Source: Gilliamella sp. wkB171
Lineage (GTDB): Bacteria; Pseudomonadota; Gammaproteobacteria; Enterobacterales; Orbaceae
Length of the DNA: 64,000 nucleotides
Direction of reading: 5' to 3'
Assembly (NCBI RefSeq): GCF_001693755.1
Contig: NZ_LYST01000043.1
Span: forward strand, 248,001 to 312,000
The notes beneath the pieces are model-generated. The model did no database searches and was not told where the DNA came from. It saw nothing but the letters and a program-made list of their open reading frames with translations. Positions 6,435 through 55,391 of the stretch are shown here, piece after piece. The first letter of the stretch is position 1. Every line of letters begins with the position of its first letter. A program made the position numbers and the translations under genes.

Positions 6435-6522
6435 TGGCGGTGAGGAAGGGATTCGAACCCTTGATACGTTGCCGTATACACACTTTCCAGGCGTGCTCCT
6501 TCAACCACTCGGACACCTCACC
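6435..6522 (-). tRNA. serT-like: tRNA-Ser (anticodon GGA)
   Basis: On the minus strand the RNA starts GGTGAGGTGTCCGAGTGG and has the anticodon arm CACGC-CTGGAAA-GTGTG, giving anticodon GGA. It has the long serine variable arm (TATACGGCAACGTATC), a GGTTCGAATC T-loop and an encoded CCA at 6435-6437. It is 88 nt long with CCA, like E. coli tRNA-Ser(GGA), to which it is nearly identical. It reads UCC and UCU codons. Confidence 0.98.
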
Positions 6523-6592
6523 AAAATTTCTCAACCCGCTAATTAAAGCAGGTTGCATACTATAATGATCACAAGCTAATTAATCAAGCTTT

Positions 6593-6682
6593 TTAGTTCA
6601 TTATAACAATGGTACCAAATGTGGCTAAAACAGCTAATATTGCTACAACAGTAACTAAAGCAAATTTTAAATTTGTACACAT
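6593..6682 (-). CDS. cydH: Small membrane subunit of cytochrome bd oxidase (CydH/CydY, YnhF)
   Basis: A 29-residue ORF with a GGAGAT ribosome-binding site 9 nt before its ATG. It starts MCTNLKFALVT and continues as one transmembrane helix ending IVIMN. E. coli YnhF is also 29 residues and starts MSTDLKFSLVT, so length and N-terminal pattern agree. YnhF was found in the cryo-EM structures of E. coli cytochrome bd-I as a fourth subunit (CydH or CydY) next to CydA. It lies 38 bp downstream of prc on the same strand, far from cydABX at 52.4-55.3 kb; E. coli ynhF is likewise unlinked to cydAB. The call rests on remembered family sequence, not on a search. Confidence 0.75.
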   Translation of the reverse strand: MCTNLKFALVTVVAILAVLATFGTIVIMN

Positions 6683-6720
6683 TTTTTATTATCTCCAATT
6701 ATTTTCTTTCAAATTCAGCT

Positions 6721-8793
6721 TTATTTAATTGATTCATTTAATGAAATAACCTTACTAATACTTTGGCTAGCATCAATTTTTGGATACTTAGGGGCTAAAT
6801 CCAATAGAATTTCAACCGCTTCATTTAAATAAGCATCGGGTATTTTATAGTCTTTTGGTAAATCTTCTAATTTAGCTATAGCTGGTTTTCCTTCACGAGC
6901 TAAACGTTCATTCATTCTTTTTAAATCACGCTCATCATTAACTTTTCGCTCTGCTTCACGCGATTTTTTGTTTAATGAAACAATGTACTGACGATCCTTT
7001 TTGTTATTAAAATCACTGATATCTTGTTCAAGATAGATAAATTCAGGATTTTTAGCTATTCGGGTTAAATGCTTAGCTGTTAAATCAGGTAAAAGCGGTT
7101 TAACATTAGCAACAGTCAAATATTCAGACGAAGGAATTTTATCCCATGGCATAGCATTATCTAAGAAACGCTCACCTGTTTCGTCCATATATTTGGTTTT
7201 ACTCATTTCAATGTCAGGCTCAACCCCTTTGAGTTGGGTACTACCACCGTTTATACGGTAAAATTTTTGTACAGTATATTGCACACCACCAAGTTCAGGC
7301 CAATTTGGATGTAATCTTGAATCAGAAGGATAAGCAATATTACGAGAAGTCTGTACCGTGCCTTTACCATAAGTTGTTTCACCAACAATTACAGCGCGTC
7401 CATAATCTTGCATTGCTGCGGCAAAAATTTCAGAAGCCGAAGCACTATATCGATTAACCATTACAACGATAGGGCCTGCATAGTCAACGCCTTTATTTTT
7501 ATCGTCATAAACGGCAACTTTTTGTAAATTATCACGAACTTGTACTACAGGTCCATTGTCAATAAATAATCCGGTTAGGGTAATTACTTCAGCTAATGAA
7601 CCGCCGCCATTATCACGTAAATCAATAACTAACCCTTGCAATTGTTCGTTTTTAGCTTGCAATAATAGATCGTGAACTTTATCAGTTAATCCCATATAAA
7701 AGCTTGGTATTTCAAGAACACCTACTTTGCCTCGTTCATTATTGATGATTTTTAATTTGGCTTCGCGATCTTCAAAATGAATTTTATCTCGGGTTAGTTC
7801 AATAATTTTAGATTTGCTATTGTTACCGGCTGGTAAAATTTCTAATCTAACTACTGTACCTTTTGGACCACGGATTTTATCGACAATATCGTCTAAGCGC
7901 CAGCCGATAACATCTTCGATAGCTGAATTCTTTTGACCAACACCGATAATTTTATCACCAACAGCGAGCAACTTACTTTTTTCAGCAGGCCCACCGGTGA
8001 CAAAAGACATGATGACCGTATAATCATCTTGTTGGCTGAGCGTTGCTCCAATACCTTCAAAAGATAAACTCATTTCAGAATCAAAATCACGTTTTGAACG
8101 CGGTGCTAGATAACTGGTATGAGGATCAATTTCACGCGCAAATGCATTCATAAACACTTGAAATGCATCTTCATTATTGGATTGTAAAATGGTTTTTATC
8201 ACACGATTATATCGTTTGGTTAGTGCTTCACGGATTTGTGTTTCATTTTTACCAGATAAAGATAAACTGAGTTCGTCATATTTAACACGTTTATCCCAAT
8301 AGGTATCAAGTTCTTTTTCAGAAGTTGGCCAGGCAATATCTTCACGTTTAAAATCAATTTCGTCATTATTGGTGAAATCCATTGGGCGCTGCAAAACCTC
8401 AAGAGCATATTTATAACGGTCATAACGCTTTTGCAAAGCGAGATTATAAATATCGTAAGCAGTTTTCAAATTACCATCTAATAATTCTTGTCCAAGCGAA
8501 TCTTGCCTATTTCGAAAACTATCCACATCACTTTGAATAAATATTGCTTTGCTACCATCAAGCATTTTGAAATAGCGATCAAAAATTTTAGCTGAAAAAG
8601 CACCATCTAAAGCAAAATTACGATAATGCGATTGAGTGAAATAGTTAGTAACTCTTCTCGCCACAACTTGATGTATATCATCTTGTTTAAGAGCAGGTAT
8701 TTGCTCGTTATTAACCTGCTTAGCCTGCGTACTTTGGCTAACGATACATAAAACAAGGCTTAATTTGATAACAACTTTGAGTAATTTATTCAT
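6721..8793 (-). CDS. prc: Tail-specific periplasmic protease Prc (S41)
   Basis: A 690-residue periplasmic protease with an N-terminal signal peptide (hydrophobic LLKVVIKLSLVLCIVSQ, cleaved near STQAK). A PDZ domain lies at about residues 240-325. The S41 catalytic segment reads NRYSASASEIFAAAMQDYG, then VGETTYGKGTVQT, providing the Ser and Lys dyad. Prc trims proteins from their C-termini, for example PBP3 and, with NlpI, murein hydrolases such as MepS. It is preceded by proQ with only 9 bp between them, the same order as in E. coli, so proQ-prc is a likely operon. Confidence 0.96.
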   Translation of the reverse strand: MNKLLKVVIKLSLVLCIVSQSTQAKQVNNEQIPALKQDDIHQVVARRVTNYFTQSHYRNFALDGAFSAKIFDRYFKMLDGSKAIFIQSDVDSFRNRQDSLGQELLDGNLKTAYDIYNLALQKRYDRYKYALEVLQRPMDFTNNDEIDFKREDIAWPTSEKELDTYWDKRVKYDELSLSLSGKNETQIREALTKRYNRVIKTILQSNNEDAFQVFMNAFAREIDPHTSYLAPRSKRDFDSEMSLSFEGIGATLSQQDDYTVIMSFVTGGPAEKSKLLAVGDKIIGVGQKNSAIEDVIGWRLDDIVDKIRGPKGTVVRLEILPAGNNSKSKIIELTRDKIHFEDREAKLKIINNERGKVGVLEIPSFYMGLTDKVHDLLLQAKNEQLQGLVIDLRDNGGGSLAEVITLTGLFIDNGPVVQVRDNLQKVAVYDDKNKGVDYAGPIVVMVNRYSASASEIFAAAMQDYGRAVIVGETTYGKGTVQTSRNIAYPSDSRLHPNWPELGGVQYTVQKFYRINGGSTQLKGVEPDIEMSKTKYMDETGERFLDNAMPWDKIPSSEYLTVANVKPLLPDLTAKHLTRIAKNPEFIYLEQDISDFNNKKDRQYIVSLNKKSREAERKVNDERDLKRMNERLAREGKPAIAKLEDLPKDYKIPDAYLNEAVEILLDLAPKYPKIDASQSISKVISLNESIK

Positions 8794-8802
8794 GCAAATT
8801 CT

Positions 8803-9339
8803 CTATTTGGTAATAATATGCTCAGGTTTAACAGTTAATTCCATGCCAGAGCCGACATTCACCTTAATATGTTCTTTTTCAATATTAATGATTTGAACTC
8901 TTAATGGTTTATTGCCTAATAATACTTTAACAAAGTCACCCACTTTTAAAGCCTTCGGTTTTTTGATTGGTGGGCGAGAATTTTTACGTTTTTCTTTTGC
9001 TCTTTCTTTGGCTTTTTGTTTACTTTCTTTTAGCTGTTGTTGGGCGTATTGTTCTTGTTCTTTATTAATAGTATCATCAGGATTTCCATCTAAATCAACT
9101 CGATTAGCGCCCTCTTTAATACTATATAAATAACGCCAGCTCATCGTGTAAGCACGCAGTGCCACACGAAGTTTGGTTTTACTAAGAACGTCACTTTCGC
9201 TCAAACGAGAAAGGATATCTTGAAATATCCCAATTTTGAGTGGTTTAGCTTCGCCTTCAAGCGTAAAACAATTAGGGAATTGTTCGACTAAATATGCAAT
9301 AATCTCTTTACTATTTGTTAATTGAAACTGACTTTCCAT
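8803..9339 (-). CDS. proQ: RNA chaperone ProQ
   Basis: A FinO-domain RNA-binding protein of about 178 residues. The N-terminal domain has NSKEIIAYLVEQFPNCF, PLKIGIFQDI and SWRYLYSIKEGANRVDLDG, close to E. coli ProQ. A lysine/arginine-rich linker (residues about 108-130) leads to a C-terminal SH3-like domain with NVGSGMELTVKPEHI. I start at 9339 (MESQFQL), which aligns with the E. coli start; an in-frame extension to 9357 adds six residues. The linker is shorter than in E. coli (232 residues). ProQ binds structured sRNAs and mRNA 3' ends. Confidence 0.95.
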   Translation of the reverse strand: MESQFQLTNSKEIIAYLVEQFPNCFTLEGEAKPLKIGIFQDILSRLSESDVLSKTKLRVALRAYTMSWRYLYSIKEGANRVDLDGNPDDTINKEQEQYAQQQLKESKQKAKERAKEKRKNSRPPIKKPKALKVGDFVKVLLGNKPLRVQIINIEKEHIKVNVGSGMELTVKPEHIITK

Positions 9340-9408
9340 TGGTAATTCCATTCGCAACTAAATTGAATTTTACTAGCGTTAAAGTATATCTCAGCTTAAA
9401 CAATAACA

Positions 9409-52260: not shown

Positions 52261-52321
52261 ATCCAAATATCACGTAAAAAAATTTGTTACTATTATATCT
52301 AAATATAAAATTCGCCGCACT

Positions 52322-52359
52322 ATGATATAAAATTACTTAAATGAAAACAATTATCATTT
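52322..52359 (-). promoter_or_regulatory. Candidate ybgC-tolQRA promoter with Fur-like box
   Basis: On the minus strand TTGTTT (52345-52350) and TATCAT (52322-52327) are 17 bp apart, a sigma-70 pattern about 55 bp before ybgC. AAATGATAATTGTTTTC (52343-52359) overlaps the -35 and matches the Fur consensus core AATGATAATCATTATC at 13 of 16 positions. Confidence 0.45.
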
Positions 52360-52396
52360 GTGACTAATTCGATTATAGTGACAATTTTTAAATTAA

Positions 52397-52423
52397 AAAA
52401 AGGTGACGATAAGCCACCTTTTT
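52397..52423 (-). terminator. Terminator after cydX
   Basis: AAAAAGGTG at 52397-52405 pairs with CACCTTTTT at 52415-52423; on the minus strand it is followed by a T-run. It separates the cydABX operon from ybgC, and no ybgE lies between. Confidence 0.75.
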
Positions 52424-52444
52424 AATTAACTTTATACTACTAAC

Positions 52445-52555
52445 TTACTGATTATTTGACTCTTTATCACTACTAATATGTTCTACCCATAATCCAGTAA
52501 CGGCAGATAACATACAAGCTGCAATAATGCCTACAAACCATAATACATAATACAT
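52445..52555 (-). CDS. cydX: Cytochrome bd-I small subunit CydX
   Basis: A 36-residue membrane peptide. It starts MYYVLWFVGIIAACMLSAVT, continues GLWVEHIS and ends SNNQ. E. coli CydX is 37 residues with the W-x-x-G and EH features (WILGTLLACSFGVITALALE, then HVES). It stabilises the haems of cytochrome bd. It begins 9 bp after cydB, completing cydABX. Confidence 0.95.
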   Translation of the reverse strand: MYYVLWFVGIIAACMLSAVTGLWVEHISSDKESNNQ

Positions 52556-52564
52556 ATCTGTTCC

Positions 52565-53701
52565 TTAATAAAGAGAATGTTTATTATTTTCAATATGATT
52601 TTTATCAAGTCGTCCAAACATTTTAATATATGACCAGATAGTATATAAAAGCACTATTGGTAAGAAGATTAATACCACTACAAACATAATATTAAGTGTT
52701 AATTGACTTGATGTTGCATCCCATATAGTTAGACTTGCATTTGGCATAATGCTTGATGGCATAATAAATGGGAATGTCGCGATAGCATAAGTAAATAATA
52801 CACATGCAATTGTTAATGACGATAAAATGAAAACTAATGCGTTTTTATTTAAACCAGAACAAAGGATAGTTAACAATGGCAAAACTACACCTAAAACAGG
52901 CACTAACCATAAAATTGGATAATTCATATAATTTGTTAACCATGATGTATCGGTAGATACAGTCTTCGCTAATGGATTAGAGGCTGCATTGTGATCAATA
53001 ACACTTGTCACTTCATATCCATGAATACCAAAAGCCACCCAAACTCCAGCTAAAACAAAAGCAATGACTAAAATCAAACTCGCAATTTGAGTCGCTTTTC
53101 TTGCGCGCAAATAAAGCTCACCAGAGGTTTTCATTTGCAACCATGCTCCGCCATGAGCAACTATTAACATTAAACTAACGACGCCAGTTAATAGAGCAAA
53201 TGGGTTAAGCAAACCGAAAAAGTTACCATCATAAAATACACGATAAGTATTGTCGTATCTAAACGGAACACCTTCTAGTAAGTTTCCAAATGCAACGCCA
53301 AATACCAATGCAGGAACAAAACTCCCAACAAAGATACCGCCATCCCATAAGTTACGCCATTTTGAATTTTCTAATTTACTACGATAATCAAAACCAATTG
53401 GTCTAAAAAATAGCGCACATAACACTAAAATCATCGCAATATAAAAGCCAGAAAATGAAGCAGCATAAGCCATTGGCCAAGCTGCAAATATACCTGCTCC
53501 ACCAGTAATTAACCATACTTGGTTACCATCCCAGTGAGGTGCAATGGCATTTATCATAATACGGCGTTCTGTATCAGTTTTTCCGATAAATGGTAGCAAA
53601 ATACCCACCCCCATATCGAATCCATCTGTGACAACAAAACCGATTAAAACAACACTAATCAGCACCCACCAGATGAAGCGTACAATTTCGTAATCAATCA
53701 T
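52565..53701 (-). CDS. cydB: Cytochrome bd-I ubiquinol oxidase subunit II
   Basis: A 378-residue polytopic subunit (379 in E. coli). VTDGFDMGVGILLPF and HWDGNQVWLITGGAGIFAAW are the conserved N-terminal blocks. It pairs with CydA to form the quinol oxidase core. It lies 19 bp after cydA and just before cydX. Confidence 0.97.
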   Translation of the reverse strand: MIDYEIVRFIWWVLISVVLIGFVVTDGFDMGVGILLPFIGKTDTERRIMINAIAPHWDGNQVWLITGGAGIFAAWPMAYAASFSGFYIAMILVLCALFFRPIGFDYRSKLENSKWRNLWDGGIFVGSFVPALVFGVAFGNLLEGVPFRYDNTYRVFYDGNFFGLLNPFALLTGVVSLMLIVAHGGAWLQMKTSGELYLRARKATQIASLILVIAFVLAGVWVAFGIHGYEVTSVIDHNAASNPLAKTVSTDTSWLTNYMNYPILWLVPVLGVVLPLLTILCSGLNKNALVFILSSLTIACVLFTYAIATFPFIMPSSIMPNASLTIWDATSSQLTLNIMFVVVLIFLPIVLLYTIWSYIKMFGRLDKNHIENNKHSLY

Positions 53702-53720: not shown

Positions 53721-55292
53721 CTATTCTGTTACCGGTTGTGTTTTTTCATAATGATAGTTGCCTGTACCTAAAGAACTCGGTCCCAAACGTGCAAATTTAA
53801 ACATTAAGAACATTTCAGCAACTAAAAATAAGGTATAAAGACCACAAATCAATATCATTGTAAATAATACTTCACCTGGAGTTAATGACGAATTTGCTAC
53901 ACCTGTTGGTAAAATATCTTGAATAGCCCAAGGTTGACGACCGTATTCAGCAACAAACCAACCACACTCACAAGCAAGCCATGGAAATGGTAAAAACAAC
54001 ATTAATAAGCGATGTAACCAGCGTCTTTCTGTAATTTTATTTTTATAAGTGGTCCACAAAGCAAAACCAGTACCAAGAATCATCAATAATCCTAGACCAA
54101 CCATACCACGGAATGCCCAAAATAGCGGCCAAACGGTAGGAATAGAATCCTCAGCAGCAGCTTTAATATGTTGTTCTGTTGCTTCAGGAATAGTTAAATT
54201 ATCACGATCAGTAAAGCGTTTAACCAAATAGCCATAACCTAAATCAGCTTTATTATCTTCAAAAGCTTTTAATACGGCAGGATCTTGATCACCTTTTTGA
54301 ATTTTTTCCAAGTTTGTATAGGCCAAAACACCATTACGAATCTTAGTTTCATTGGTATTTAAGATGTCTTTCAAACCAATAACTTGAGTATCTAATGAAC
54401 GTGTCGTCATAATGCCCATAACATATGGGATCTCAATAGCGAATAAATTTTCTTTATTTTTTTGAGAAGGAAAAGCTATAACATTAAATGATGCTGGTGC
54501 AGGTTGAGTTTCCCACTCACCTTCAATCGCAGCGAGTTTAGTTGGTTGAACAGTAGTCATTTCGTGACCAGCTTCATCACCCATAAACGCAACTAAAATC
54601 GACATGATAAAACCAAACATTGCCGCCACAGCAAAAGAACGTTTGGCAAAAGCAACATCACGTTTTCTAAGTAGATAGTATGAACTAATACTTAAAACAA
54701 AAATAGCACCAGTTAAATAACCTGCTGCAACAGTATGAACAAATTTATATTGCGCAACAGAATTGGTAATTAACTCAAAAAAGTTCGCCATTTCCATTCT
54801 AGCATTGATAGGATTAAATTCAGAACCAACAGGGAATTGCATCCAACCATTAGCCACTAATATCCACAATGCAGAAAGATTTGAACCAAAAGCAACGCAC
54901 CAAGTAACCAATAAGTGCTTACCTCGACTTAATCTATCCCAACCAAAAAAGAATAGACCAACCATTGTTGATTCTAGGAAAAATGCCATTAAACCTTCAA
55001 TAGCTAGTGGCGCACCAAAAATATCCCCCACATAGTGTGAGTAATATGACCAGTTCGTGCCGAACTGAAATTCCATTGTCAAACCTGTGGCAACACCAAC
55101 GGCAAAATTAATACCAAAGAGTTTTCCCCAGAATTTGGTCATATCTTTCCAAACTTGCTTACCACTTACAACGTATACTGTTTCCATAATTGCTAACAAA
55201 AACGCTAAACCAAGCGTTAATGGTACAAAGATGAAATGATACATTGCAGTAAGTGCAAATTGGAGGCGTGATAGTTCAACTATATCAAACAT
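53721..55292 (-). CDS. cydA: Cytochrome bd-I ubiquinol oxidase subunit I
   Basis: A 523-residue subunit with the long Q-loop form of E. coli. The haem b595 ligand His19 lies in [10 protein letters not shown], a haem b558 His in [10 protein letters not shown] and the GWxxxExGRQP motif reads [14 protein letters not shown]. It reduces O2 to water with high affinity, without pumping protons, supporting low-oxygen respiration. It follows sucCD by about 100 bp, as in E. coli. Confidence 0.98.
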
Positions 55293-55391
55293 ATTTGCTC
55301 CCTACTCCATAAATGCTCACTAAATTAATATCGTTATTGTTCGATATTGTACATCAATATTTTAAAATATAATTTGACGGATATCAAAAAA

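What the first reader, a model, noticed from the sequence alone, without database searches (positions are those of the whole stretch)
6593..6682. Hidden 29-residue cytochrome bd subunit gene (CydH/YnhF) beside prc
A short ORF with a good ribosome-binding site matches E. coli YnhF in length and N-terminal pattern (M-x-T-x-L-K-F-x-L-V-T). With cydABX at 52.4-55.3 kb the genome would encode all four bd-I subunits. Gene finders with a length cutoff would miss it.
Basis: partly seen in the sequence, partly recalled or inferred. Interest (0 to 1): 0.6.

Follow-up and report, generated by a model that had tools for sequence, protein, structure and literature searches.

The report
CydH oxidase subunit gene behind prc
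A bee-gut bacterium (Gilliamella) does carry a tiny 29-residue gene for the fourth subunit (CydH) of its only oxygen-consuming respiratory enzyme; it is an ordinary member of a known family, though chasing it turned up still shorter, unmodelled versions in two other bacterial families.

Summary
On the minus strand at 6593-6682 lies a 29-codon ORF, MCTNLKFALVTVVAILAVLATFGTIVIMN. It has a conserved GGAG ribosome-binding site and starts 38 nt after the prc stop codon. It matches the NCBIfam CydH/YnhF equivalog model over its full length (39.6 bits, cut-off 30). It is the only one of 1,477 short ORFs in the window to score above 9 bits against an independent CydH profile. 34 of 35 genomes of the genus (Gilliamella) carry it, and all 30 loci examined show prc - cydH - tRNA-Ser(GGA). 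Substitutions are those of coding sequence (dN/dS about 0.3). The genome has one cydABX operon, in this window, and no haem-copper oxidase, so CydH would be the fourth subunit of its sole terminal oxidase.

It is not 'hidden' from current annotation, because an NCBI model covers it, so it is a new member of a known kind.

Beyond the finding, 26-aa (family f9, presumably Pasteurellaceae) and 27-aa (family f6, presumably Vibrionaceae) ORFs score below the NCBIfam cut-off. Profile similarity, and in f9 the E. coli purR neighbourhood, mark them as divergent CydH. In 296 sampled genomes, above-cut-off CydH occurs only with long-Q-loop CydA. Function as a plug over haem b595 is inferred from E. coli structures.

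The parts
6593..6682 (-). cydH (ynhF) coding sequence, 29 aa, MCTNLKFALVTVVAILAVLATFGTIVIMN, ATG start, includes stop codon
   Evidence: (NF033411 39.6 bits, cut-off 30)
6693..6696 (-). ribosome-binding site GGAG of cydH, 10 nt before the ATG
   Evidence: sequence; invariant in 13 aligned sequences
6721..8793 (-). prc (C-terminal processing peptidase), immediately upstream of cydH; 38-nt gap without promoter- or terminator-like site, so probably one transcript (inferred)
   Evidence: (NF008388, 940 bits)
8803..9357 (-). proQ-like gene upstream of prc (same strand, 9-nt gap to prc); name from its position and sequence, not from a family search
6435..6522 (-). tRNA-Ser (GGA) downstream of cydH
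   Evidence: same place in all 30 loci of the genus inspected
6559..6587 (-). likely promoter of the tRNA-Ser gene (TTGATT-17-TATAGT), starting just after the cydH stop codon
   Evidence: blocks around CTTGA and ATTATAGTATGC nearly invariant in 13 sequences
53721..55292 (-). cydA, 523 aa, long Q-loop type; partner to which CydH is inferred to bind
   Evidence: 6rko_A E 5e-235
52565..53701 (-). cydB, 378 aa
   Evidence: TIGR00203 573.9 bits
52445..52555 (-). cydX, 36 aa
   Evidence: (PF08173 28.4 bits, cut-off 26.2)
55374..55387 (.). FNR-like box (TTGACGGATATCAA) upstream of cydA; no such box next to cydH

Best explanation
The ORF is cydH (ynhF), the gene of the single-helix fourth subunit of the bd-I quinol oxidase, in a Gilliamella (bee-gut Orbaceae) genome. 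Shown here: it is a real, conserved, protein-coding gene; it belongs to the CydH family; and cydABX of the matching long-Q-loop type is in the same genome as its only terminal oxidase. Inferred from the E. coli bd-I structures: the peptide crosses the membrane once, lies in the cleft between helices 1 and 9 of CydA, and closes the lateral opening to haem b595, so that O2 reaches haem d through the channel in CydB. Inferred from anatomy: it is made from the prc transcript (38 nt downstream, own strong RBS, no promoter or terminator between), so it is produced outside the FNR-like control seen in front of cydABX and finds the complex in the membrane.
For: NF033411 equivalog 39.6 bits over positions 1-29 of 29, cut-off 30. 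Profile of 18 Orbaceae sequences hits PDB 6rko_H (E. coli CydH) at E 5.8e-6; hhalign against CydH of other families E 1.4e-13. Present in 34 of 35 genomes of the genus, the exception being a 74%-complete assembly, with prc on one side and tRNA-Ser(GGA) on the other in all 30 loci inspected; also behind prc in all six loci inspected from the other genera of the family. Coding-type substitutions, invariant RBS. Long-Q CydA with the haem ligands and Q-loop extension of E. coli CydA; one CydA and no haem-copper oxidase in the genome, matching the report that cytochrome bd is the only terminal oxidase in 95 Gilliamella genomes (PMC11325843). All 67 genomes with an above-cut-off CydH have long-Q-type CydA; none of 96 genomes without it has CydH. 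Mechanism from PMC6853902 and PMC8951039.
Against: No expression, proteomic or copurification data for Gilliamella. The C-terminal half is hydrophobic and poorly conserved between families, so the contact surface could not be tested. Co-transcription with prc rests on the absence of sites in a simple scan. Sampled genomes are related, so the co-occurrence count is not independent evidence per genome.
Confidence: 0.92

Rival explanations
1. A chance short hydrophobic ORF in the gap between prc and the tRNA promoter, resembling CydH because all short hydrophobic helices look alike.
For: 29 aa is short, and 79 ORFs of at least 25 aa are listed in the surrounding 7.5 kb.
Against: Coding substitution pattern, no stop in any of 29 distinct sequences, invariant RBS, full-length hit above a curated cut-off, next-best short ORF 28 bits lower.
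Confidence: 0.01
2. A real small membrane protein of the CydH family that has left the oxidase and now serves another partner, for example Prc, next to which it sits in all Orbaceae examined.
For: Fixed linkage to prc in every Orbaceae locus examined; no linkage to cydABX beyond ordinary regional synteny; no FNR-like box next to it.
Against: The motif MxTxLKxAL is kept; E. coli ynhF is also unlinked to cyd (between purR and ydhP; PMC6853902) and is nevertheless an oxidase subunit; cytochrome bd is the only oxidase of this genome and is of the type that carries CydH.
Confidence: 0.05
3. A real CydH bound to the oxidase whose role is assembly or haem b595 stability rather than steering O2. This is a variant of the best explanation, not an alternative identity.
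For: The plug role in E. coli is itself a structural inference; E. coli bd-II and mycobacterial enzymes work without CydH (PMC8951039).
Against: The structures place CydH exactly over the b595 opening (PMC6853902).
Confidence: 0.3

Closest known systems
E. coli CydH/CydY (YnhF), PDB 6rko chain H, NCBIfam NF033411
   Same: 29 aa, N-terminal M-x-T-[ND]-L-K-F-[AS]-L-V-T, one hydrophobic helix, gene away from cydABX, same type of CydA partner
   Different: E. coli gene lies divergent from purR, before ydhP; here it lies behind prc in front of tRNA-Ser. The C-terminal halves differ.
CydX (this window 52445-52555; E. coli CydX/AppX)
   Same: Single-helix small subunit of cytochrome bd
   Different: CydX is encoded in the cyd operon, has a different sequence (MYYVLWF...) and in E. 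coli sits at CydA helices 1, 5 and 6 (PMC6853902).
CydY and CydZ of the 2014 CydX conservation study (PMC4325964)
   Same: Small hydrophobic proteins linked to cydAB
   Different: Encoded next to cydAB in other clades; that older 'CydY' (delta/epsilon group) is not the CydY = YnhF of the 2019 structure paper.

Membership tests
CydH/YnhF (NCBIfam NF033411) | Match to the curated equivalog model above its cut-off | tested here: met
   39.6 bits versus 30, model positions 1-29 of 29
CydH/YnhF (NCBIfam NF033411) | About 29 residues, one hydrophobic stretch, M-x-T-x-L-K N-terminus | tested here: met
   K6 invariant and L5 nearly so in 18 Orbaceae sequences
CydH/YnhF (NCBIfam NF033411) | Real coding gene conserved in relatives | tested here: met
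CydH/YnhF (NCBIfam NF033411) | Genome encodes long-Q-loop CydAB(X) | tested here: met
CydH/YnhF (NCBIfam NF033411) | Gene location next to purR as in E. coli (not a defining feature; listed for completeness) | tested here: not met
   Located behind prc in Orbaceae. Other families differ too (gloA/nth in f6).
CydH/YnhF (NCBIfam NF033411) | Physical presence in the purified bd oxidase, bound at CydA helices 1 and 9 | not testable with these tools
   Needs copurification or cryo-EM; only single chains can be modelled here
CydH extension: 26-aa family in f9 (presumed Pasteurellaceae) | Sequence relation to CydH | tested here: met
   hhalign E 5.4e-7 and 9.5e-7; its profile finds genuine CydH of G298 and G029 among 296 genomes at E 0.001. 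But below the NF033411 cut-off, 16-21 bits.
CydH extension: 26-aa family in f9 (presumed Pasteurellaceae) | Orthologous position (divergent from purR) | tested here: met
   purR divergent in 19 of 30 loci, with mnmC downstream in 29 of 30; purR beside cydH in all 15 E. coli-like (f19) loci, annotated so in E. coli
CydH extension: 27-aa family in f6 (presumed Vibrionaceae) | Sequence relation to CydH | tested here: met
   hhalign E 8.3e-9 over positions 1-14 only; reciprocal hits to genuine CydH at E 0.002-0.008
CydH extension: 27-aa family in f6 (presumed Vibrionaceae) | Orthologous position | tested here: inconclusive
   gloA beside it in 10 of 10 loci, nth in most; gloA also lies near purR-cydH in L076, so the region is shared only loosely

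The most novel reading that the evidence does not exclude
CydH is much more widespread in this order than existing models show, including families (f9, presumably Pasteurellaceae; f6, presumably Vibrionaceae) where they do not call it because the protein shrank to 26-27 residues and, in f9, lost the conserved lysine. Blocking of haem b595 would then be a general property of their long-Q-loop bd-I enzymes, and the CydH lineage could serve as a genomic marker of the E. coli-type haem arrangement.
Probability: 0.75. Interest if true: 0.4.

Novelty: new member of a known kind. Interest (0 to 1): 0.25.

Why it matters
For this genus cytochrome bd is the only way to respire oxygen, so a complete subunit list (CydA, B, X, H) is useful for work on bee-gut respiration and for any purification or heterologous expression of the enzyme. 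More generally, the divergent 26- and 27-residue relatives suggest that the current CydH model undercounts, which matters for the proposal (PMC6853902) that presence of cydH marks the E. coli-type mechanism.

Tried and rejected
Rejected: chance ORF. Considered: prc-linked function without the oxidase; not excluded but unsupported. A promoter-like TATAAT inside cydH (6600-6627) is not kept in relatives, and the number of such sites found is near the shuffle expectation. The weak second match in G015 (L079) is a 23-aa ORF elsewhere; I did not accept it. Weak NF033411 hits in families f2, f12 and f22 (L171-L175) lie in longer unrelated frames or poor ORFs and were rejected. Pfam gave no CydH family for any of these proteins. 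No structure was predicted: a lone 29-residue helix would say nothing about binding, and complexes cannot be modelled here.

Full report
What is there. The ORF at 6593-6682 is real and lies on the minus strand. It encodes MCTNLKFALVTVVAILAVLATFGTIVIMN. Upstream is prc, ending 38 nt before the start codon, with a GGAG at 6693-6696. Downstream, the likely promoter of a tRNA-Ser(GGA) gene (6435-6522) begins just after the cydH stop codon; its blocks are nearly invariant in relatives, whereas the prc-cydH gap is variable except for the RBS. No promoter- or terminator-like site was found between prc and cydH, so I infer that cydH rides on the prc transcript.

Is it coding? In 29 distinct sequences of the genus pN/pS is 0.44 (Jukes-Cantor 0.26 and 0.82). 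45% of differences fall in third codon positions and 21% in second. Column shuffles gave pN/pS 0.91 on average (minimum 0.59), and none of 200 kept all rows free of stops. The gene is found in 34 of 35 genomes of the genus and in other genera of the family, behind prc in all six loci inspected there. Named genomes place the genus as Gilliamella, family Orbaceae (nearest Prc 97% identical).

Is it CydH? NCBIfam NF033411 (CydH, equivalog) gives 39.6 bits against a cut-off of 30 over the whole model. Single-sequence search of the PDB puts E. coli CydH (6rko_H) first at E 0.038, and the Orbaceae profile reaches it at E 5.8e-6 as the only hit. hhalign between the Orbaceae profile and a CydH profile from other families gives E 1.4e-13. 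Against 1,477 short ORFs of the window an independent CydH profile scores this ORF 36.9 bits and the next 8.6.

Its partner. cydA, cydB and cydX are at 53721-55292, 52565-53701 and 52445-52555. CydA aligns to E. coli CydA almost end to end (784 bits), including the long Q-loop extension, the E99-x-L101 region of helix 3, and His19, His186, Met393 and Glu445 (residue roles from PMC6853902 and general knowledge). The genome has one CydA and no haem-copper oxidase, in line with PMC11325843, which reports cytochrome bd as the only terminal oxidase in 95 Gilliamella genomes.

How it works. In E. coli CydH/CydY lies between helices 1 and 9 of CydA and closes an opening to haem b595; O2 then enters through CydB to haem d (PMC6853902, PMC8951039). 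I infer the same here. The E. coli gene is likewise outside the cyd operon, between purR and ydhP, and is annotated so in E. coli genomes.

Distribution. Of 296 genomes of the order, 67 have NF033411 matches over the cut-off, and all 67 have a CydA of the long-Q type (E below 1e-180). The 58 genomes with only a weak, short-type CydA match and the 38 without CydA have none; the nominal probability is 5e-14, not corrected for relatedness. 'Long' and 'short' here are read from the strength of the match to the E. coli-type CydA model, not from loop lengths. Within one family (f26) one genus has long-type CydA and CydH, while another has only short-type CydA and no CydH.

Beyond the finding. It scores only 16-21 bits with NF033411, yet profile comparison relates it to CydH (E 5e-7). 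Its own profile finds two genuine CydH genes among 296 genomes. It lies divergent from purR in 19 of 30 loci, as cydH does in all 15 E. coli-like loci. Family f6 (presumably Vibrionaceae) has a 27-aa ORF, MTTELKMALGTTVIIAICFSAFFVSLF, beside gloA in 10 of 10 loci, related over its first 14 residues. I read both as divergent CydH, the first with more confidence. I found no mention of them in the papers I could search, but that library is incomplete.

Verdict. A correct, well-made observation of an ordinary gene: new member of a known kind. The unmodelled relatives are the more interesting by-product.

Noticed in passing
L181-L210, L061-L065 (e.g. L065:3068-3148 +): A 26-aa ORF (MGTFGYAMITVVASLGMIVLFAYNIF type) with RBS, often divergent from purR and before mnmC, in most genomes of family f9 (presumably Pasteurellaceae); below the NF033411 cut-off, probably divergent CydH.
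   Followed up: yes
L161-L170, L211-L230: A 27-aa ORF (MTTELKMALGTTVIIAICFSAFFVSLF type) beside gloA and mostly nth in family f6 (presumably Vibrionaceae); probably divergent CydH, not called by NF033411.
   Followed up: partly
L073:2951-3055 - and L074:2908-2994 -: One genome (G065, family f6) carries two CydH-like genes, one beside gloA and one elsewhere, but a single long-type CydA.
   Followed up: no
window 55374-55387; alignment A6: An FNR-like box between sucD and cydA, its two half-sites conserved across 12 Orbaceae loci, within 100 nt of the cydA start; none next to cydH.
   Followed up: partly
window 52267-52444: No ybgE-like ORF between cydX and the ybgC-like gene, unlike the E. coli order cydABX-ybgE-ybgC-tolQ (E. 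coli order from memory).
   Followed up: no
families f2, f12, f13 and part of f22 (G117, G236, G255, G264): Genomes with long-type CydA in which no CydH was detected by any of the three profiles: true absence or further divergence.
   Followed up: no
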